Below, one piece after another: positions 1,764-15,546 of a stretch of DNA of 15,546 nucleotides. The notes under the pieces were generated by a model. It searched no databases. It was given only the letters and a program-made list of their open reading frames with translations, and had not been told where the DNA came from. The translations under genes were made by a program, and so were the position numbers. Position 1 is the first letter of the stretch, and every line of letters begins with the position of its first letter. The stretch is from NCBI GenBank assembly GCA_024741835.1, contig JAENRP010000497.1, forward strand, positions 8,604 to 24,149. Reading direction: 5' to 3'. Source of the DNA: Diplocarpon mali (Eukaryota; Ascomycota; Leotiomycetes; Helotiales; Drepanopezizaceae).

Positions 1764-1768
1764 CTTTT
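1764..1768. repeat. Target-site duplication of Copia element, left copy
   Basis: The five bases CTTTT directly left of the Copia LTR are repeated exactly at 8826-8830. A 5-bp duplication is normal for Ty1/Copia integration. Confidence 0.93.
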
Positions 1769-1966
1769 TGTGGTGCGGTCGGCTGGAGGGCCTTCATTAG
1801 GTCGCTCAAGAGGCTCGCTGATATAGGAGAAGATGATTGATTGTATTATTATCTAGTATATATCTGGTAAGAAGACTTCAGAAAGAAAAGGGAGAGTCTA
1901 TGACTTAGCAGGAGTTACGTAGAGGGTCTCTAGAATAAGTGGAGACTCCGCCTATTCTATACAATA
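1769..1966 (-). repeat. Copia 3' LTR
   Basis: This is 198 bp long, begins TGTGGTGCGG on the plus strand and aligns without gaps to 8628-8825. I count 17 differences, all transitions. The terminal CA seen in the other copy (8824-8825) is TA here. Confidence 0.95.
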
Positions 1967-1975
1967 TACCCCCTA
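1967..1975 (-). promoter_or_regulatory. Copia polypurine tract (second-strand primer)
   Basis: Read on the minus strand, the bases directly before the 3' LTR are CTAGGGGGTA, a short G-rich run in the position expected for the polypurine tract that primes plus-strand DNA synthesis. The tract is short and is assigned mainly by position. Confidence 0.6.
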
Positions 1976-2280
1976 GTTAGGCGATGCTCCTAGAATCGCT
2001 CAGCTATATAGATAAAACAAAAGAAAGAATAGCAGTTGTAAGGAAAAGAGGCTCCATCTTACGTGCCGCCCCTTCAAAGGTCGTTTCTTCTAGAATAAGA
2101 AGGGTCGCTATAAGCAACAAGCGCGCTTAGGAATCTTCGCGATTCTACGCTAGTGCTCCATTGGGCTTCCTATAGAGTATTTCCATCGTAGAGGTTCTCC
2201 TTCCCTTCTTTTAAAAACAACCCTCCTTTATTATTTAAAAATATCGTCTTTATACTAATAATTTTTAAATATAGAAGGAA
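1976..2280. other. Copia untranslated tail, AT-rich part
   Basis: This stretch between the purine tract and the GC-rich block has no coding frame I can recognise on either strand. Bases 2210-2275 are strongly AT-rich (TTTAAAAA-type runs) and lie directly upstream of the plus-strand frame starting at 2293. They could hold a core promoter for it, but I see no definite element. Confidence 0.4.
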
Positions 2281-2292
2281 CTCCCGCTCGTC

Positions 2293-2706
2293 GTGGCCCC
2301 AGCCGCCTCCGCAAAGTAAGACCCTTAGAGTCCCTATACCCTGCGTTATACTGACTTTGCGCTAGGTCGCTGGCGCTCCTTTGGGAGCTGCAACCCTGGC
2401 GTGATCGTCCCAGCGCTTGCTGGGCAACGAGCCGCTGCCGCCGCCGCTCCTGTCCCGTCCGCCGCCGCTATCGCAGCCGCTGCTATGGTGTCTCCCTTCG
2501 TCTCCCCCGTCCCCGCCCCCGCCATCGCTGCTCCCGCTGTCGCCGCCGCCCCCGCCGCACCCCCCGCCTTCGCCCCCGCCGTCGCTGGTATATTCGCCGG
2601 CGGGCCTCTGGCCGAGGGAGTACCTCCGGGCCTCTCTCGAGAGGAGATCTGTGCGGAGCTTATGGCTGTGGCTTCGCGGCTCCTAGCGCTAGCTAGGAGG
2701 ATCTGA
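2293..2706 (+). CDS. GC-rich antisense open frame in Copia tail, Ala/Pro-rich protein, function unknown
   Basis: I do not recognise this protein. From GTG at 2401 the frame is open for 101 codons to TGA at 2704-2706. Upstream, the same frame continues to 2293 with only a TAA at 2317 and a TAG at 2326, both explicable as RIP-altered CAA and CAG. The middle is a low-complexity Ala/Pro/Val segment. The end (about the last 30 residues, containing SREEICAELMAVASRLL) is a plausible amphipathic helix. Codon third positions are strongly biased to C or T (GCC, GCT, CCC, GTC), as in fungal coding DNA. It runs opposite to the Copia genes and is far richer in GC than its surroundings. A 126-codon minus-strand frame overlaps it (2346-2726), but its Ala/Gly composition looks like a by-product. 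It could be a captured host fragment, an accessory antisense gene, or chance openness in GC-rich DNA. Confidence 0.4.
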
Positions 2707-2709
2707 GAA

Positions 2710-2900
2710 AGGGTCGCGCTTTGCAATAGCGGCTTAGGAACGTTACTTATCCTATATTTTTAGAAAAGGAGAGCTTTTGCAATGCACTTTATAAGAGAAA
2801 AAAAATGAACGTGACTATAAGAGAGTAGGAGCTTGTAAGTATAAGTCTCCTAATAATAAGTGACTACTCGCTAGCGAGTGCGAGTTATTAAACGATTGTT
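2710..2900. other. Spacer between antisense frame and end of Copia pol
   Basis: No gene is seen. It contains a 14-bp perfect palindrome, ACTCGCTAGCGAGT (2866-2879), close to where the degraded pol frame fades out. Confidence 0.4.
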
Positions 2901-3330
2901 TAAAAGCTCTAGAGGTTTAATAAACAAACAAAGCTCTTAAACTTCTGGCGGTCTAGGTTCTTAGTAAGCCTATCTGCGTGCATCTCCCTAGTAGGGAGGT
3001 AGATTATCTAGAAGCTTCCTCTCTAATACTCTTGGCGGATCTATATATTGCTGATTTCGACATATCGGAGGCTCGTCTTAATCTTCTCGTTCTCTATGAT
3101 AATTAGCCAAATCGTCTATTAGTTATCGCAATATATATTCTATTTAAAGAGGGAGTCTATGCGAATCTCTTTAAAGAGGCGTTTTATAGCTATTATCTCC
3201 TTTGCAGTAGAAACTATACTATAGAGTTCTACTTTAATAGAGGAGAGCGTGATAGTCGCTTGGCGATTCGCTTTCCAAATAATCAGTCCTTTAAATAGGA
3301 AGAAGACGTATCCCTAGGAGGATCTGCGGG
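2900..3330 (-). pseudogene. Copia RNase H and pol C-terminus (remnant)
   Basis: Read leftward, the frame shows KANRQATITLSSIKVEL, followed by the STAKEIIAIKRLF helix, a CDN motif and, near the end, a LTKNLDRQKF block. These match Copia RNase H: the W-K-S-x-x-Q-x-x-x-x-L-S-S-T-E-A-E-Y strand and helix, the catalytic D in CDN, and the terminal A-D-x-L-T-K motif. The catalytic Glu of the E-Y pair survives as V-E-L. The domain would remove RNA from the RNA/DNA hybrid during reverse transcription. Stops of the RIP type interrupt it. It follows the reverse transcriptase (3560-4330) in the same polyprotein. Confidence 0.85.
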
Positions 3331-3559
3331 TCTCTCGGTCATCTCCGAAAGAAGCATCTAAAGACGCGACCAATTAGTGTTCCTTAGCCTTAAAGCTATA
3401 GGCAATTCCTAAGAAGCGTATGCTATATAGGTATCGAAGCGTCCAGTCCGCGGCTAAGAGGTACTTAGAGCTTGGATTAGTTAAAAAGAAAGATAGTTAG
3501 GAGACTGCGAACGCAACGTCCAGGCGTATTATAATCGCTGTATAAAGAATAAAGCCTAT

Positions 3560-4330
3560 TTTTTCTTAGTACTCCTTTACCTTTTCTAAAGAAGCTTGCC
3601 TTAAGTTCTTAATAAACTCCTTCTTTAGCAGTAGAGTACTAGGCACTCTCTCTATATCAGCTCTGAACTTTTGAGCGATCTTCTTAATATAGGTATTATA
3701 AACTAAGGAGATCCTCTTTGCCTTCTTATCCCGAATAATCCTTACTCTAAGGAACTAGGAGATATCTCCTATAATAGTAAGCTTATACGCCCTCTTTAGG
3801 TCTTTAATCAGACGAGTCGCCCGATCTAAGTTAGAGGCCTTATATAATACTTAAATATCGTCGACGTAAAACGCTATAAAGACTATGCGATCCTTTATTA
3901 TGAAAATACAAGGCTCCTCGCCTAGTAGCTCGAGTTGAAGGCCCTTGAGCGTTCCTGCGAAGTTCCTATACTATAGCGCTAAAGAGTCTTTCAGCTTATA
4001 AAGCGCGCGGTCCAGTTCTACTACCATACTAAGGCGCTTAAAGCCATCTAGTAGGAAGCATATAACTAGAGCACTCCTTAGGTCTCTAGGAGCGTTAACG
4101 AATGCGTTAACGATGTCGAACTGCTTTACTTCCATATCGAAGTACGCGGCAAGCGCTATTAATACCTTAAAAGACCTCGCTGCAAGCGTGGCTGCGTAGG
4201 TTGAGAAAATTGAAGCTTTGTCTTAGAGATCCTCTTGTATAACTAGCTATGATCGGCACTTTAGAAGCTCGCTAGAGCTATTAACCTTATAGGTAAAAAC
4301 CCATTTTAATAGTATTAGCAGAGGCTTTAA
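3560..4330 (-). pseudogene. Copia reverse transcriptase (remnant)
   Basis: The frame begins near 4320 with KWVFTYKV, the classic start of Copia RT. It continues with FDIVNAFVNA (family form F-D-V-x-x-A-F-L-x-A, with one catalytic Asp), LDRALYKLKDS (family form Y-x-L-x-x-A-x-R/L-x-W) and the active-site YVDD at 3857-3868, which is intact. Downstream are K-A-x-x-L-D-R-A-T-R and the L-T-I-I-G-D-I-S block (family form G-x-x-x-F-L-G). The domain copies element RNA into cDNA inside virus-like particles. Stops within the frame (for example directly after YVDD-I) make it inactive. RNase H follows downstream. Confidence 0.9.
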
Positions 4331-5590
4331 GTAATCCCTTTGTATGATTTTCTAGCAACTTCGAGATTCCAAATTCCTAATCTCCTAGCGCCTTCCTTCT
4401 TTAAATCGTTTGCTAAAAGGGTGCTTCTCTAAGTCCTACCATCCTTTTAAAGGCTTCGGCAAAGAGCCTTAATACTATAGGCGGTTAGGAGACTGCGCTC
4501 TATCCTTTGCCCGACTATCAACTGCAGCTTTAATAATTGTATAAACTATCAAATGGTCCTTCCTATCCTCCCTTGTCTATTCGTTCGCTTAGAAGGTTGA
4601 TACAAACTCTTGCGTACGTAGGGAGCAGGGTAAATTAATATTGCTTTAAGAGAGCATATACTTTAGAGCAGTAGCGTACACTTTTGAAGTCTCCTATTGC
4701 TTAACGCTTGAGCGTCTTATCCTCTTTTACTTAAGAAGAGGGAGTTCCTCTTTACGCTTTTCTCTACAGGTCTCCTCCTCTATTTTTATTATTGCTAGAG
4801 GTTCCTTTAAGAGTCTAGGTAACTTTATCTCCTAAGCCTATAGTCTTTAAGTTGGTATTATAACTTAAGGTATTATATTATTAAGGCCTACTCCTTTTAT
4901 TAGGTCGCTTCTTATAAGACTATTAAAGCTCCTCCTAGATCTTGGTAGCAGTGCCTTTAGCCTTTTACTAGAGTTTACTAGGGCTTGCTTTTATAATTGA
5001 AGACTTTGTCTTAGAGCCCTTAAGCCATCTCTATTCTTGCGCAGAATAGCGGCTAAAGATCTGCCGATCGCTTTATAGAACTCGTCTTTAAAGACTCCCT
5101 TAGAGTCGTCTACAGTTCCTTCTTCGGTAGGGCCTCTATAAGGAATTATCACCCCTAAGCTCTAGTCGCCATTTGCCTTTTTAAAGACTAGCGAAGTAGC
5201 TTCCAGTTCGCTTGCTTCTACCTCCGAGTTTCTAAGCGGGTCTCTTAGAGAATTTGAATTTAAGTTAAGGCCTTCTATATTATTAGTTGGAGGCTATAGA
5301 GCAGCGTCGGTCTATGATGCAGACTCTTCTTATACAGCGGCTTCTTTTGCGGCGATTGCGTTCGGCCCTGCGATAAGCTCCGATTCCTCGAAAATGCCTT
5401 CGAACTTAGCGTCCTAAGCTCTCTCTCCCTCTCCGATTAATTAGAGGGTCGTCTTAAGTTCCTGGCGCGATATAGGGTTTGCGCGCTTAGCTTTTGGACT
5501 ATAGAAGAGAGACTTATCGAATTCGATATTATAAGTTATCATTACTCGCTAGAGCATAAGAACCCAGATTCTATAAACATTAGAGGTAAT
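4331..5590 (-). pseudogene. Copia pol linker between integrase and reverse transcriptase
   Basis: This stretch joins the integrase C-terminus to RT in the polyprotein order. I see no named motif in it. Copia polyproteins normally have a long, poorly conserved, Ser/Glu-rich linker here, so the length is in keeping with the family. It carries many TAA/TAG stops on the minus strand. Confidence 0.55.
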
Positions 5591-5599
5591 ATATTTAAT

Positions 5600-6510
5600 T
5601 AAGTAACTTAAGTGCCCTTATGGTTCAATTTTAAAGGTTCAGCGGTCCCTCCCCGCCTCCCTCTCCTTAATTAAAGGGTATGCGCGAGCGCTATACGCAT
5701 AAACGCGACTCTAGTTGGGCTTTAAGCTCGCTGTTATCTACTTAATAAGCAGCGGCTTATAAAATTGAAAATACTACTTAAACCAATTGTAGAGAGCCTC
5801 GCTTAATAAGATCATCTTTTTCCTAGCGAGTAGGGAGATATTATAGAGGTATATAGCAGCCTTTACAACCTCTGGCCAAAGGCTTGCTAGAAGCTTAGCG
5901 TAGATCCTCATTTTAATAGAGCGTTTAATCAACTCCCTTCTTACTCGCTCTACGCCTCTATTAAGTTAGTGTATATAAGCGGGAGTAAGCTCTAAATCGA
6001 TTCCCTCCTCTTTTACCTATCTCTAGTACTTTATAAGAGAGTCTTCCCTTAGGGAGATTACTAAAGTGTTATTATCTTACTTGATTTTGCAAATAGAAAG
6101 CCTATATTAGCGTTTCACTTGTGCTTTAAAGGCTTAGAGGACCTCTATAACTATATCTCCGCCCTTTGATCTTAATAGGAACGTCTAAAGTATACCGCTG
6201 TACTCGTCCTTAATTAAAAGAACCTATAAGCAACTGTTGTACAAGTTGTTTAAAAAGTTAAAGAGATCCTAGGAGATTTTGAAGAAGGGCCTCAGAGATC
6301 GGTTCTCAAAGGTAGCATAAGAAATAACTTGCTTAACAGACGCTACTACGCATATAAGGCACTCTAGCCTTTATATTCCCTTGATCTTCACTCCCTTAGC
6401 GCACTTGACTAGCGCTTAGAGAGCCTCTGCGCCTAGGTAGCTAGCGCAAAGGTGCCAAGTGTACGCGTCGTTATCCCGCACCTTAGTAGGTATATAGCTA
6501 GATTAGAACC
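5600..6510 (-). pseudogene. Copia integrase (remnant)
   Basis: A GAG-pre-integrase region starts near 6470 with DAYTWHLCASYLG, the family W-H-x-R-L-G-H zinc-finger start with the second His changed. It runs through a GVKIKGI block to a Cys near 6365. The core shows D1 in the KDEYSG segment near 6210-6218, D2 in a D-N-N remnant near 6065-6080 (family D-N-G, a G-to-A change) and the catalytic Glu in LNRGVERVRR near 5960. LLASLWPEVVKAAIYLYN follows (family L-P-x-x-L-W-x-E-A-V-x-x-A-x-Y-L-x-N). Placement before RT is diagnostic of Copia. Stops and the D-N-N change make it inactive. Confidence 0.85.
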
Positions 6511-6849
6511 TATTATAAAGCGTTGTCTTAGCTGTAAGGAACACTATTAAGGCAGAGAAGTTATATTAAAGTATATTTAAAAGATCTAAATAGTTGATAG
6601 GCTTATATTTAAAGAAAACGAGATTGTAGCAACGCTTTAATTAAGCTCGCTTTACAGAATCTCTAATGCTCCTAGAGCGTAAAGTGAGGTCTACCCTAGA
6701 GTACTAAAAACCCTTATCCGCAAGGAGCCTCTTTAAGATAATATTAATAGTAAACTCCTCTATAATAGCAATATTGCAAAGCGTTATTCCTATAGGAGAG
6801 CCGTCACGCTATAGAAGAAAGTCTACTATATATCTATTACCTTTCCTAA

Positions 6850-7090
6850 TGATTAGGAGTCTCGAAGTACCTGCTTTAATATATTGCTACGAGTCGCCAG
6901 AAGGCTTGAAGGTGCCTGCGATAAGTAAATCCTTTAAATTAACAATATAAGTAGCTGCGCAATTGTCAAGGAGCGTACTTAAGGAGAGCGGGTGGCGTTT
7001 TAGCTTAAAGAGGTAGTAGACGTTGAACGATTCTTTAAAAGCATTAAAGGCAGAGGGATCCATTACTATAAAGACTGGTAAGTTCTCCCT
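6850..7090 (-). pseudogene. Copia aspartic protease (remnant)
   Basis: The minus-strand frame DPSAFNAFKESF leads into LSTLLDNCAATYIV. The DNCA at 6956-6967 matches the D-S/N-G/C-A active site of Copia proteases, preceded by the usual hydrophobic strand. The enzyme would cut the Gag-Pol polyprotein. This stretch is short of stops compared with its neighbours. It lies between the Gag zinc knuckle and the GAG-pre-integrase region, as expected. Confidence 0.8.
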
Positions 7091-7249
7091 TTTACTACTT
7101 AAACCGTCCTTCCTAAAGGCTAAAGCCTTTCCTTTGAATTTGTCAATCGCTATTACCGTAATATCATTCTCCTTAAGCTATGCTCAGAGACCCTTGAACT
7201 AGTCTCCTGCGTTTAAAGCCTTTTGTATTCGTAGGACCTCCTCTCGCGA

Positions 7250-8422
7250 GGGGAGAACCTTTATGTTTTCCTTACGCCTATCTATAGTATACAACAGTTT
7301 CCGACAGTCCTAGGGCTTCCAATAGTGATTTTTAAAGCCTCCACAAGGGCACTTAGGCCTGATCTCCCTCCTGGAGCTTATGGAGCGATTTCGGGAGCTG
7401 CTCGCTAGAGCCTGCGAAGGGGTTTCGGCATCTAAGAGAGACTCTCGAGTAGCAAAAACTGCTAGCCCTTTATTATCGATCGCTCTATTAGATTTAATGC
7501 CTGCTAGGGCGCGGCTCAGCTACATTAGGTCGTGCTTGCATAGGGTTCCTATCTACTTATTAGTAATGATTTCCTCCTTTAGGCGAGTCGCCTAACTCGG
7601 ATTGATCTTCACTGCGACTAAGTCTAAAAAGTCAGTAACTCCCAGTCTCCCTTTGATCTTAGGAAGACTATATTGCTCTGCTAGGCGGTACGCCTCCTAC
7701 TACTCCCAGATCTACTATTAAGTATTAGTTCTCCCAGTTTTGCCTTAGCGTAATATGTTGCAGTATTAAAGCCTTATCTAAGACTGAATAGCCTTATTAG
7801 AAGGCGCAATATCACGCTTTAAGATAGATACTAGGCCTTAGAGTAAGAGTTGCTAATTGACCAAATTAGCATGCGGGTCGTTAGTAGTAGTTCCACTTAT
7901 AGGAGTATCTCTATTAGGTATTAAAGAGGAGAGCTTCTTAGCTTGGATTTATACTTAAGCCATCGCAGAAGCTAGGAGCGTTCCGTCGACGGTCTTAGAG
8001 ACCCATTTTAAGAGTAGCTTATAGTATTTGCATTAGGTCTTCTAAGTTTCCTTACGCAAGTGGTACTCCTTTATTAAGATTTTATATTTATCCTTAATAT
8101 CCTTATAAGAAGCCTATGGAAGAGGAGCCTTTGACGGATCTCCTAAGGGAAAGCGGGCGTAAATCTATTCGGATAGAGTCGCCGCATACTCTTCACACAA
8201 CCTCGCGTATACTACGCAGAAGTTAGCCGTTTCCAATTCCTTAAGCTCCTATATAAAGGAAGCTTAAGGCTCGGTCTCTATAATTGACTTAAATAGGAGT
8301 CTCAGATCGGCAAAAATGGTAATATTATAAAGCTTAGCGAAGAATATGTATTTACTAAACCACTTCACTTAAGAGGCAGAGGTATTAAGGCGAGGCTCGG
8401 AGATGCTCGAAGAGTTAGACAT
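7250..8422 (-). pseudogene. Copia Gag with zinc knuckle (remnant)
   Basis: The start is the ATG at 8420-8422, giving MSNSSSISEPRLNTSAS, a Ser-rich Gag-like N-terminus about 200 bp inside the 5' LTR. The body contains Leu/Lys-rich helical segments such as LYNITIFADLRLLF and ends in a zinc-knuckle remnant at 7304-7351, KCPCGGFKNHYWKP followed by a stop and DC (C-x-C-x5-H-x6-C as read). Gag forms the virus-like particle, and the knuckle binds element RNA. About a dozen TAG/TAA stops (CAG, CAA or TGG derived) break the frame. A plus-strand open frame at 7380-7595 is its shadow. Confidence 0.82.
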
Positions 8423-8614
8423 TTTAAATAGAGTCTAGTGAGAAAGGTTAAGTATATAAATGAGGTTTGCAAATAAGATTCGATCGGAAAATAGAGATTT
8501 ATTAATTAAAAATAAAGGTCCTTCAAGTTGTTATAAGTATTCGAAAAGTCGGTCAGGAGCTCGAAGGGCCCTCTAGCCGGTTGCATGCGAAGAGAAAGCA
8601 TATTAAAGTGCTCA

Positions 8615-8627
8615 TAGGGCTTATAAT
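8615..8627 (-). promoter_or_regulatory. Copia primer-binding site, half-tRNA(iMet) type
   Basis: The 13 bases abutting the 5' LTR read TAGGGCTTATAAT on the plus strand. This resembles the anticodon stem-loop of initiator tRNA-Met (CAGGGCTCATAAC in the yeast form as I remember it), with three differences, all C-to-T. Copia and Ty5 elements are known to prime from a half-tRNA cut in this loop. A near-identical site adjoins the TRIM LTR at 9145. Confidence 0.65.
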
Positions 8628-8825
8628 TGTAGTGCGGTCAGCTGGAGGGCCTTTATTAGGTCGCTTAAGAGGCTCGCTAATATAGGAGAAGATGATTAAT
8701 TGTATTATTATCTAGTGTATATCTGGTAAGAAGACTTCGGAAAGAAAAGGGAGAGTCTATGACTCAGCAGGAGTCACGTGGAGGGTCTCCAGAATAAGTG
8801 GAGACTCCGCCCATTCTGCACGACA
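8628..8825 (-). repeat. Copia 5' LTR
   Basis: This is 198 bp long, with TG at 8628 and CA at 8824-8825 on the plus strand. In the element's sense it starts TGTCGTGCAGAA. It carries the element's promoter by position, although no definite TATA box was picked out. Confidence 0.95.
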
Positions 8826-8830
8826 CTTTT
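8826..8830. repeat. Target-site duplication of Copia element, right copy
   Basis: CTTTT is identical to 1764-1768. Removing the element and one copy restores the Gypsy RNase H frame. Confidence 0.93.
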
Positions 8831-9054
8831 AGTTGTCTTTGCTTAAAGTATATACAATTTGAAAATTGAAGTCAAATAGGAATTCCATCTATTAGTACTA
8901 TTTTATAGTTAGAACCTTAATAGTTATAAAGTACTTAAGGGAGCGGTAATCTAAGTAAATATTAACTCGCTTCTTAAGTGATATAAGCTTAGGTCTCCAT
9001 TTATAGTAGGATTTAATAATAGCAAAGAGTTCCTTATTATATATTTCCTAATTA

Positions 9055-9059
9055 GGTTT
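9055..9059. repeat. Target-site duplication of TRIM, left copy
   Basis: GGTTT stands immediately before the first 85-bp repeat and is repeated at 9558-9562. Confidence 0.88.
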
Positions 9060-9144
9060 TATTATACAGAAAATAGGCTAAATATGCTAGTACGCGCCCT
9101 AAGGTGTGGATTCACATTTTGGCTGAGCGGTATTATACATAACA
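9060..9144 (+). repeat. TRIM 5' LTR (85 bp)
   Basis: It begins TATTATACAG and ends ATACATAACA. It differs from the 3' copy at five positions, all transitions. The least-mutated ends (TATTATGC...GCACAACA) suggest original inverted termini TGTTGTGC...GCACAACA. Confidence 0.87.
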
Positions 9145-9156
9145 GTTATAAGCCCT
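9145..9156 (+). promoter_or_regulatory. TRIM primer-binding site, half-tRNA(iMet) type
   Basis: GTTATAAGCCCT directly follows the LTR. It is complementary to the initiator tRNA-Met anticodon loop (GTTATGAGCCCT in the yeast form as I remember it) apart from one G-to-A change. The same site in the Copia element reads ATTATAAGCCCT on its sense strand. Confidence 0.65.
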
Positions 9157-9462
9157 ATAAGCGCAGCGATAATTCTTTTTGCATTCCTCTTGCGCAAGGT
9201 TTAGCCGACTTTTCTCACTTCGAAGTTCTACTAGTAAACCACTTTTCAAATTCTTAGTAATGATTATACTCAGTTTCGACTGCATTAATAGAAGTTTCAA
9301 TAGATTTGAGTAAAACGACCTCCGATGTATGGCCGAAGAAAATTGCATTCCGGCCCTTCCGACCACCTATTTTCTACTAGCTTAGCAGTCTATGCGCCAC
9401 ATCTACGCTACTATAGACTAGGCTAGTACTTAGGCCGTTGGAAAAACTGTTCTTCCGGCGGC

Positions 9463-9472
9463 CTAAGGGGTA
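9463..9472 (+). promoter_or_regulatory. TRIM polypurine tract
   Basis: AAGGGGTA stands immediately before the 3' LTR, where plus-strand DNA synthesis would be primed. It closely resembles the Copia tract AGGGGGTA. Confidence 0.65.
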
Positions 9473-9557
9473 TATTATGCAGAAAATAGGCTAAATATGC
9501 TAGTACGCGCCCTAAGGTATGGATTCACATTTTGGCCGAGCGGTATTATGCACAACA
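9473..9557 (+). repeat. TRIM 3' LTR (85 bp)
   Basis: It begins TATTATGCAGAA and ends GCACAACA, is colinear with 9060-9144 (offset 413) and shows no gaps. The open frames on both strands over 9475-9682 are by-products of this repeat. Confidence 0.87.
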
Positions 9558-9562
9558 GGTTT
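9558..9562. repeat. Target-site duplication of TRIM, right copy
   Basis: GGTTT is identical to 9055-9059. Confidence 0.88.
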
Positions 9563-9879
9563 ATAGCTAAAGAGTATATGCGAATAGAAGCCAATTGGGT
9601 ACTATTGCTTATCAGAGTATTGCTAAGAAAGTACTCTAGCGATAATGCTATTAGAAGCATTAGTTTCCAGCTTTATAAGTAAGTTAAGGTTAAAATAGTA
9701 AATCTGCTAAATTAAGAGTAACTACTTATAAAGCTCTTTAAAAGCGATTCGGCACTCTTCTATTTAATTCTAAGGTACTATTAGTTAGGTTAAAATAAAA
9801 AGGGGTTTAGCAATTAGCTTAAAGTTGCAAATAAATTATTAATAGAACTTGCAAAATCCTAAGTAGGACTTCACTTTAA

Positions 9880-14940: not shown

Positions 14941-15546
14941 CCTCCTTTTTAATAGTTATCGAATTAGTATCTACCAGTTGCTAAAGGGCCTGATTTAGAT
15001 TGGCTTTTATTATAGTATTAGCAGGGTTACTAGTACTATCGATCTAACGTATCTCTATAAGCTCCCTATTCTTATACGATTGTCGAATAGCTATTATATC
15101 GATTATTAATCGCTTTTCCTTTATAGTACCTAATTTAATAATACACTTATATAAGGAGAGGGAATCTGTATATATAATAGTAAGGAGGCAGGGTAGACTT
15201 AGCTTAGCTGTTACTATATCAATTATTATAGCTATAGAAACTAGCATATCAATACCCGCTACTATGGCATACAGTTCGGAGGCCAGTATAGCTCTTATCA
15301 CTCTTTTACACTTCGTCGAGCTGTAGTATAGAATATTGCCTTTTAAAGTAAACTGCGATTCTCCTTCCTCTTTAATAGCTAGTACGATGATATAGCCGAT
15401 CTGCGAGCTTAAATCCTTATTATTGTTAAGATGGGTGATACAGCTATCACTCCGATATATTATCATATGACCCTACTGCTTAGTCAGTAGGATATTAATA
15501 CATATATAGCTATAGGGAAGAAAGGGGTAACCTTCCTTCCTTAACT
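14941..15546 (-). pseudogene. C-terminal RNase H of a second Copia-type polyprotein, cut by window edge
   Basis: The minus-strand frame is open for 140 codons (15466 to 15044). It then continues past a TAG at 15044-15046 with NPANTIIKA and LVDTNSI to about 14945. Motifs match fungal Copia-type RNase H. There is a first-strand Asp in YRSDSC (family Y-T-D-x-S), then SSQIGYIIVL and KCKRVIRAILASELYAI (catalytic Glu in the S-E-L-Y block). YTDSLSLYKCIIKLGT (catalytic Asp) and EKRLIIDI follow. The closing N-P-A-N-T-I-x-K-A resembles the family N-P-A-D-x-x-T-K ending. RT and the rest lie to the right of the window. The methionine at 15466 is internal. This sequence differs clearly from the RNase H at 2900-3330, so it belongs to another family. 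Confidence 0.82.

What the first reader, a model, noticed from the sequence alone, without database searches (positions are those of the whole stretch)
9055..9562. A complete TRIM with 85-bp LTRs, all hallmarks present, in a fungal genome
The sequence shows two colinear 85-bp repeats 413 bases apart, a perfect 5-bp duplication (GGTTT) and a primer site touching the first repeat. A purine tract touches the second, in a unit of only 498 bp. TRIMs are well known in plants and less often described in fungi. LTR ends resemble TGTTGTGC...GCACAACA, decayed by transitions.
Basis: partly seen in the sequence, partly recalled or inferred. Interest (0 to 1): 0.75.

Follow-up and report, generated by a model that had tools for sequence, protein, structure and literature searches.

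The report
Tiny fungal retrotransposon and its helper
A 498-base jumping element with no genes of its own, present in many copies in an apple-blotch fungus, seems to borrow the copying machinery of a larger kind of element lying next to it, and two hybrid insertions suggest that the two were copied together.

Summary
In detail: 9060-9557 is a complete TRIM (85-bp LTRs, 328-bp noncoding interior, TSD GGTTT). The host is Diplocarpon (Marssonina) coronariae or close kin, an ascomycete (one gene). The LTR core occurs at 216 places (control 0); 53 of 57 testable loci have perfect 5-bp TSDs; joined flanks close without a gap in 42 of 43 spanning cases. Decay is RIP-like: 226 transitions, no transversions between the LTRs of 40 elements. 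The primer site complements the 5' half of a host tRNA-Met.

Beyond the finding: the window also holds a decayed 7,057-bp element, probably Copia, at 1769-8825 (minus, TSD CTTTT), with similar LTR ends, primer site and purine tract but a different LTR body and interior. Two hybrid insertions join these two families at the LTR/primer-site junction, both with perfect TSDs and empty sites. One has the form expected from plus-strand transfer between co-packaged cDNAs, so that family is the likely mobiliser. Sequence signals alone hardly separate it from a second Copia family. Kind: known; pairing and hybrids: not seen in print in my searches.

The parts
9055..9059 (.). TSD GGTTT, left copy
   Evidence: empty site in L039
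9060..9144 (+). 5' LTR of the TRIM (85 bp)
9145..9157 (+). Primer-binding site, complementary to the 5' half of a host tRNA-Met (CAT), anticodon-loop type; in most copies 5 exact bases then a G-to-A change, and 15 of 15 if read as purine/pyrimidine
9145..9472 (+). Noncoding internal region (328 bp)
9429..9467 (+). Hairpin just before the purine tract; it lies in the last 99 alignment columns, where no column has two or more purine/pyrimidine-odd copies among 64 (4 columns have one)
9465..9470 (+). Polypurine tract AAGGGG, followed by TA and then LTR2
9473..9557 (+). 3' LTR of the TRIM (85 bp)
9533..9543 (+). A-box-like TGGCCGAGCGG in LTR2 (LTR1 equivalent at 9120-9130); no B box found, so function doubtful
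9558..9562 (.). TSD GGTTT, right copy
1764..1768 (.). TSD CTTTT of the larger element (low side)
1769..1966 (-). 3' LTR (198 bp) of the larger Copia-like element
1967..8627 (-). Internal region of the larger element; longest stop-free stretch 137 codons; purine tract abuts the 3' LTR, primer site abuts the 5' LTR
3974..4222 (-). Reverse-transcriptase-like piece (RVT_2, E 0.0032, below the curated cut-off)
8628..8825 (-). 5' LTR (198 bp) of the larger element; the two LTRs differ by 17 transitions and no transversions
8826..8830 (.). TSD CTTTT of the larger element (high side)

Best explanation
It is one copy of a young TRIM family. A short noncoding RNA is made from the element (inferred) and packaged by the particles of an autonomous LTR element of the family now lying dead at 1769-8825 (inferred, chiefly from two hybrid insertions). 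It is reverse-transcribed from the 5' half of initiator tRNA-Met (complementarity shown, use inferred), copied off the purine tract (inferred) and inserted with a 5-bp target duplication (shown). The LTR, the first 28 internal columns and the last 99 stay nearly constant while the middle drifts (pattern shown; that these are the needed signals is inferred). Because both families share the primer site, plus-strand strong-stop DNA of one can jump to the minus strand of the other; L050 has that form (structure shown, route inferred). RIP-like mutation then hits the copies, tandem arrays worst (pattern shown).
For: Copies, solo LTRs and distinct TSDs. Empty sites with two-TSD control. Primer match: 13 exact bases in 3 of 64 copies, 11 in 2, 5 in 59; 15 of 15 as purine/pyrimidine in 64 of 64. 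Larger element in the window with a perfect TSD. Shared signals under purine/pyrimidine coding: runs of 20 bases from the primer site on, 10 back from the 3' LTR, 12 at the LTR start, 3 at the LTR end. Hybrids L050 (TSD CACTC, empty site in L043) and C565:8384-16279 (TSD ACATC, empty sites in several loci). RIP context: CpA mutated at 0.34 and 0.53 (LTR, interior) against CpT at 0.02 and 0.09; 226 transitions and 0 transversions in 3,401 LTR-pair sites. RIP load: array outer LTRs above single-element LTRs (p 2e-5), inner above outer (p 1e-4). Conservation of interior ends.
Against: Only two hybrids, and gene conversion could also swap an LTR. In the hybrids the Copia LTR differs from the window copy by 3-4 transversions, so the helper was a relative, not this copy. 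The window's element has no long frame, its RVT_2 match is below the curated cut-off, and of three other pieces none gave a retrotransposon domain. A second abundant Copia family (124 pattern matches at its purine-tract/LTR junction) scores nearly as well: across the 5' junction 31 and 30 of 38 agree as purine/pyrimidine once its one extra base is skipped, against 33 of 38 (the 21 and 22 were out of register). It falls behind mainly at the LTR start (10 and 9 of 12 against 12). LTR body and interior are not shared. No expression data. The copies sampled were the best hits to a mutated query.
Confidence: 0.75

Rival explanations
1. A TRIM mobilised mainly by the other Copia family of this genome (L102/L103 type, LTR 237-253 bp) or by several families alike.
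For: That family has the same half-tRNA primer site and a similar purine tract and LTR start (CCTAGAGGGGTG|TGTTGCAG); 124 pattern matches. In register its 5' junction agrees at 31 and 30 of 38 against 33 of 38 for the window's element.
Against: Both hybrids found are with the window's family. The other family has an extra base before the primer site and a poorer LTR start (10 and 9 of 12 against 12). Only two full-length members were examined.
Confidence: 0.17
2. A Pol III-driven TRIM (Helenus/TRIMp3 type) whose LTR derives from a tRNA gene.
For: A-box-like TGGCCGAGCGG or its RIP forms in 111 of 119 LTRs; half-initiator-tRNA primer and 5-bp TSDs as in fungal Helenus (PMC10886601).
Against: B-box core GGTTC in 0 of 119 LTRs and GGTTCRA in 0 of 64 interiors; runs of four or more T in all 119 LTRs and all 64 interiors. 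No tRNA match in Rfam or ARAGORN.
Confidence: 0.05
3. The hybrids arose after insertion, by gene conversion or crossover, and say nothing about co-packaging.
For: Joins lie at or within about 20 bases shared by the two families; the composite at C565 could be a one-LTR Copia circle crossing into a TRIM at the primer site.
Against: L050 would need conversion anchored by about 12 shared bases at the LTR start; its TSD is perfect and its form is the one predicted for strand transfer.
Confidence: 0.25
4. A local duplication rather than a transposed element.
For: Two direct repeats.
Against: Many dispersed copies, distinct TSDs and empty sites.
Confidence: 0.01

Closest known systems
Plant TRIMs with an autonomous relative, e.g. 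OsajRetroS10/OsajLTRA10 (PMC4717578; passages and one section read)
   Same: Short noncoding LTR element, tandem arrays (TA-TRIMs), putative Copia mobiliser.
   Different: There the TRIM is deduced to be a deletion derivative, with 97% LTR identity; here only LTR ends, primer region and purine tract are alike, and hybrids provide the link.
Fungal Helenus (TRIMp3; PMC10886601: abstract, results, discussion, tables and legends read)
   Same: Mostly a half-initiator-tRNA primer, 5-bp TSD, thought to depend on Copia, LTR not shared with the helper.
   Different: Helenus is defined by a tRNA-like LTR and is reported there, among fungi, from basidiomycetes; this LTR has no B box and the host is an ascomycete.
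TRIMs in ascomycetes: Venturia (PMC4646964, passages read); search step in Pseudocercospora (PMC13041039, passages read)
   Same: TRIM predictions in ascomycetes, RIP-bearing in the case of Venturia.
   Different: Pipeline labels near effector genes, or a search protocol; no helper, primer or hybrid in the passages seen.
Dasheng/RIRE2 in rice (Jiang et al. 2002; recalled, paper not held; named in passages)
   Same: Non-autonomous LTR element paired with an autonomous partner; chimeric copies (recalled).
   Different: A large derivative (LARD) whose LTRs share high identity with the partner's.
RLG_Cereba/RLG_Quinta in wheat (PMC11302176, passages read)
   Same: Cross-mobilisation inferred, with aligned PBS, PPT and LTR-end regions.
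   Different: The non-autonomous partner contributes GAG protein; it is not a noncoding miniature.

Membership tests
TRIM | Two short direct LTRs around a short interior | tested here: met
   85-bp LTRs, 328-bp interior, 498 bp total
TRIM | No coding capacity | tested here: met
   No ORF of 120 aa or more in the element; shorter ORFs were not listed
TRIM | Primer site next to the 5' LTR and purine tract next to the 3' LTR | tested here: met
   GTTATRAGYYY at the start of 63 of 64 interiors; purine-tract pattern at the end of 62 of 64
TRIM | Target-site duplication at dispersed sites | tested here: met
   53 of 57 perfect, 51 distinct
TRIM | Mobilised in trans by an autonomous element | tested here: inconclusive
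   Shared signals and two hybrids; no live helper or assay
Helenus (TRIMp3) | tRNA-derived LTR with A and B boxes | tested here: not met
   A-box-like motif in 111 of 119 LTRs, B-box core in 0 of 119; no tRNA model match
Cassandra | 5S rRNA-derived sequence in the LTR | tested here: not met
   No 5S match in Rfam at E up to 1 in window 8900-9700 or up to 10 in 5 loci
Retrozyme | Hammerhead ribozyme in the LTR (recalled) | tested here: not met
   No hammerhead match in Rfam at E up to 1 in window 8900-9700 or up to 10 in 5 loci
Copia (element at 1769-8825) | Copia-type reverse transcriptase | tested here: inconclusive
   RVT_2 E 0.0032, 17.6 bits against a 31.6-bit cut-off, on one of four stop-free pieces tried
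Copia (element at 1769-8825) | Paired LTRs, TSD, primer site and purine tract | tested here: met
   198-bp LTRs, TSD CTTTT, signals at both junctions

The most novel reading that the evidence does not exclude
The two hybrid insertions are genomic snapshots of a TRIM and its autonomous helper being reverse-transcribed in one particle. Plus-strand strong-stop DNA crossed between the two through the shared primer site, and an integrase accepted a molecule with one end from each family. A helper can then be recognised by hybrids and short end signals although LTR bodies and interiors are unrelated. I saw no such record for a TRIM in an ascomycete in the listings.
Probability: 0.55. Interest if true: 0.6.

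Novelty: new member of a known kind. Interest (0 to 1): 0.5.

Why it matters
For 278 of 289 plant TRIM subfamilies no coding partner was found (PMC4717578), and how TRIMs stay dependent on a helper is stated to be unknown (PMC10886601). Here a member of the candidate helper family and the TRIM lie 234 bp apart, share only short cis signals, and the two families left hybrid insertions, which makes the minimal requirements for trans-mobilisation testable. The family also offers a graded natural experiment on RIP: single copies, array ends and array middles of the same 85-bp sequence carry rising mutation loads.

Tried and rejected
Local duplication: rejected by dispersed copies and empty sites. 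Pol III/tRNA-derived LTR: no B box and no tRNA model hit. Autonomous element with a similar LTR body or interior: blastn of TRIM LTR and interiors against 33 Copia loci gave best E-values of 1.4 and higher; against the window's own element the best was 46 bp at E 0.01, across the LTR end and primer site. One search, a junction pattern, found nothing; one search was spoiled by my choice of last base (1 match) and was repeated. L101 showed no LTR pair. Claim that solo LTRs escape RIP: solo LTRs average 2.2 mutated sites of 16, but full-length elements from the same list average 3.5 and 2.1, so it is not supported. Copia folds before the purine tract are only weakly structured (z -1.7, -2.2), so the TRIM hairpin is not clearly shared; the opposite strand of the TRIM hairpin folds as well. 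PF21808 on one Copia piece is taken as spurious. PMC9970103: TRIM as a whole word 0 times in the main text.

Full report
WHAT IS THERE. No ORF of 120 aa or more lies in the element. ARAGORN finds no tRNA in the window; Rfam gives only sub-threshold matches in window 8900-9700 and in five other loci.

HOST. A frame of the RNA polymerase III subunit gene in the assembly (L104) is 100% identical over 99% of its length to that of Marssonina coronariae, now Diplocarpon coronariae, Ascomycota, Helotiales. Next are Drepanopeziza brunnea at 94% and Cadophora gregata at 93%. The published genome of strain DC1_JKI is 34.15% repeats, 20.74% LTR/Copia, and no word beginning with 'rip' occurs in that paper's main text (PMC11527701, passages read). 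The species is inferred from this one gene.

FAMILY. A 24-base LTR core occurs at 216 places with up to 2 mismatches, reversed-pattern control 0. I fetched 60 loci from the best hits; each of these searches scored only 40 of 105-222 candidates, and some listed LTR hits were not fetched. With the window this makes 61: 44 LTR-interior-LTR, 7 with two interiors, 1 with three, 6 solo LTRs, 2 without a TRIM left LTR, 1 array cut by the stretch fetched. Four run into the end of a stretch or contig. Of the 57 testable, 53 have perfect 5-bp TSDs, 51 of them distinct. The other four are L042 (one base different), L049 (truncated right LTR), and L048 and L050, which proved to be hybrids with perfect TSDs once their true ends were used. 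At offset positions 9 of 2,964 matched. Three more loci fetched later (L107-L109) are not in these counts.

EMPTY SITES. Many insertions lie in other repeats, so their uninterrupted sites can be found. Of 57 loci with enough flank, joined flanks with one TSD copy aligned across the junction in 43, with no gap in 42 and a 5-base gap in 1. With both TSD copies kept, 41 of 42 showed a 5-base gap (the other 1); with 12 further bases removed, 40 of 42 showed a 12-base gap. The window's own insertion has an empty site in L039. This shows insertion with a 5-bp duplication directly.

RIP AND AGE. C in CpA is mutated at 0.34 (LTR) and 0.53 (interior), CpG at 0.14 and 0.25, CpC at 0.00 and 0.15, CpT at 0.02 and 0.09. 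Between the two LTRs of 40 elements there are 226 transitions and no transversion in 3,401 sites. So the divergence is RIP-like and the insertions are otherwise young. LTRs in tandem arrays are hit harder: of 16 variable sites the mean mutated is 5.4 and 5.2 in single elements of the same list (n 35, 33), 8.5 and 7.1 at array ends (8, 8), 11.7 inside arrays (9) (Mann-Whitney p 2e-5 and 1e-4; LTRs of one element are not independent).

CIS SIGNALS. Two genes that ARAGORN calls tRNA-Met(CAT), initiator-like by recall, give a 5' half (L099 used) whose complement matches the start of the interior: 13 exact bases in 3 of 64 copies, 11 in 2, 5 in 59 (the sixth base differs, as after a G-to-A change), and 15 of 15 as purine/pyrimidine in all 64. 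Priming by an anticodon-loop fragment is known for Copia and Ty5 (stated in PMC10886601). Interiors fall in three length groups (326-329, 338-339, 345-348 bp) and one 335-bp copy. The 38 alignment columns with two or more purine/pyrimidine- or gap-odd copies lie between columns 29 and 253 of 352; the last 99 columns have none, and 4 with a single odd copy. The 119 LTRs show 1-2 odd copies at 5 columns. The last 105 bases fold much better than shuffles (mean z -3.5, 56 of 64 below -2), whereas bases 61-165 do not (mean z +1.2, 0 of 64, mononucleotide shuffles; dinucleotide shuffles of 119-base stretches of two copies gave z -4.9 and -4.2). The opposite strand of the hairpin folds too. What the hairpins do is unknown; packaging is my guess.

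ARRAYS. Eight arrays keep a perfect outer TSD. In L030 the two interiors belong to different groups (345 and 328 bp, 11 transversions); L041 and L045 differ by 5 transversions, L035 and L040 by 2, L053 by 1, L029 and the three units of L036 by none. Set against no transversion between LTR pairs, L030, L041 and L045 at least are unlikely to come from unequal exchange between copies of one insertion; recombination with another cDNA, or before insertion, is likelier. For L029, L036 and L053 it stays open. Tandem TRIMs are known in plants (PMC4717578).

HELPER. The window repeat at 1768-1958/8627-8817 is a pair of 198-bp LTRs of a 7,057-bp element on the minus strand, 1769-8825, with TSD CTTTT and 17 LTR differences, all transitions. 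One stop-free piece matches RVT_2 weakly, and parts resemble Copia loci; I call it Copia-like. Its 5' LTR begins TGTCGTGCAGAA where less-mutated TRIM copies begin TGTTGTGCAGAA; it ends GCACTACA or GCACCACA where the TRIM ends GCACGACA; primer region and purine tract are alike. The LTR bodies and interiors do not align beyond the ends. A second Copia family (L102, L103) comes close: 31 and 30 of 38 against 33 at the 5' junction, 10 and 10 of 12 against 11 at the purine tract, 10 and 9 of 12 against 12 at the LTR start, with one extra base before the primer site. So signals alone favour the window's family only slightly; the hybrids carry the case.

HYBRIDS. L050: TSD CACTC, window-type Copia LTR (197 bp; 11 transitions, 4 transversions and 1 gap column against the window's 5' LTR), TRIM interior, TRIM LTR, TSD CACTC; empty site in L043 with no gap for one TSD and 5 for two. 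C565:8384-16279: TSD ACATC, TRIM LTR, Copia primer site and interior, Copia LTR, TRIM interior, TRIM LTR, TSD ACATC, with empty sites in several loci, no gap for one TSD and 5 for two. Only parts of its Copia interior were read (52, 701 and 502 bp); the interval is 7,201 bases against 6,661 in the window copy. The joins fall at the LTR/primer-site junction; within the shared stretch after it the exact point cannot be told. Transfer of Copia plus-strand strong-stop DNA to a TRIM minus strand predicts the L050 form; the composite can be explained by a one-LTR circle crossing in at the primer site. Both readings are inference.

NOVELTY. A TRIM in a fungus is not new. What appears new is this family, its likely helper and the hybrids. 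I saw no paper describing them in the listings, but supplementary files were not open to me and most subscription papers are not held.

Noticed in passing
window 1769-8825 (-): Complete, RIP-decayed 7,057-bp Copia-like LTR element with TSD CTTTT, 234 bp from the TRIM; now part of the explanation.
   Followed up: yes
G000:C65:57150-57420 (L112): Two TRIM LTRs directly head to tail, the first lacking its last 4 bases, like a two-LTR junction, within a larger array.
   Followed up: partly
window 2346-2726 (-): GC-rich, alanine-rich open frame inside the decayed Copia-like element, unlike its surroundings in base composition; no Pfam match.
   Followed up: partly
window 15044-15466 (-): 140-aa frame that reads like a Copia RNase H by eye; no Pfam match; 15424-15546 is 97% identical to Copia locus L092.
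   Followed up: partly
loci L009-L068: RIP load of the same LTR rises from single elements to array ends to array middles.
   Followed up: partly
L102, L103: Second Copia family, 237-253 bp LTRs, same half-tRNA primer site, 124 pattern matches at its purine-tract/LTR junction in the genome.
   Followed up: partly
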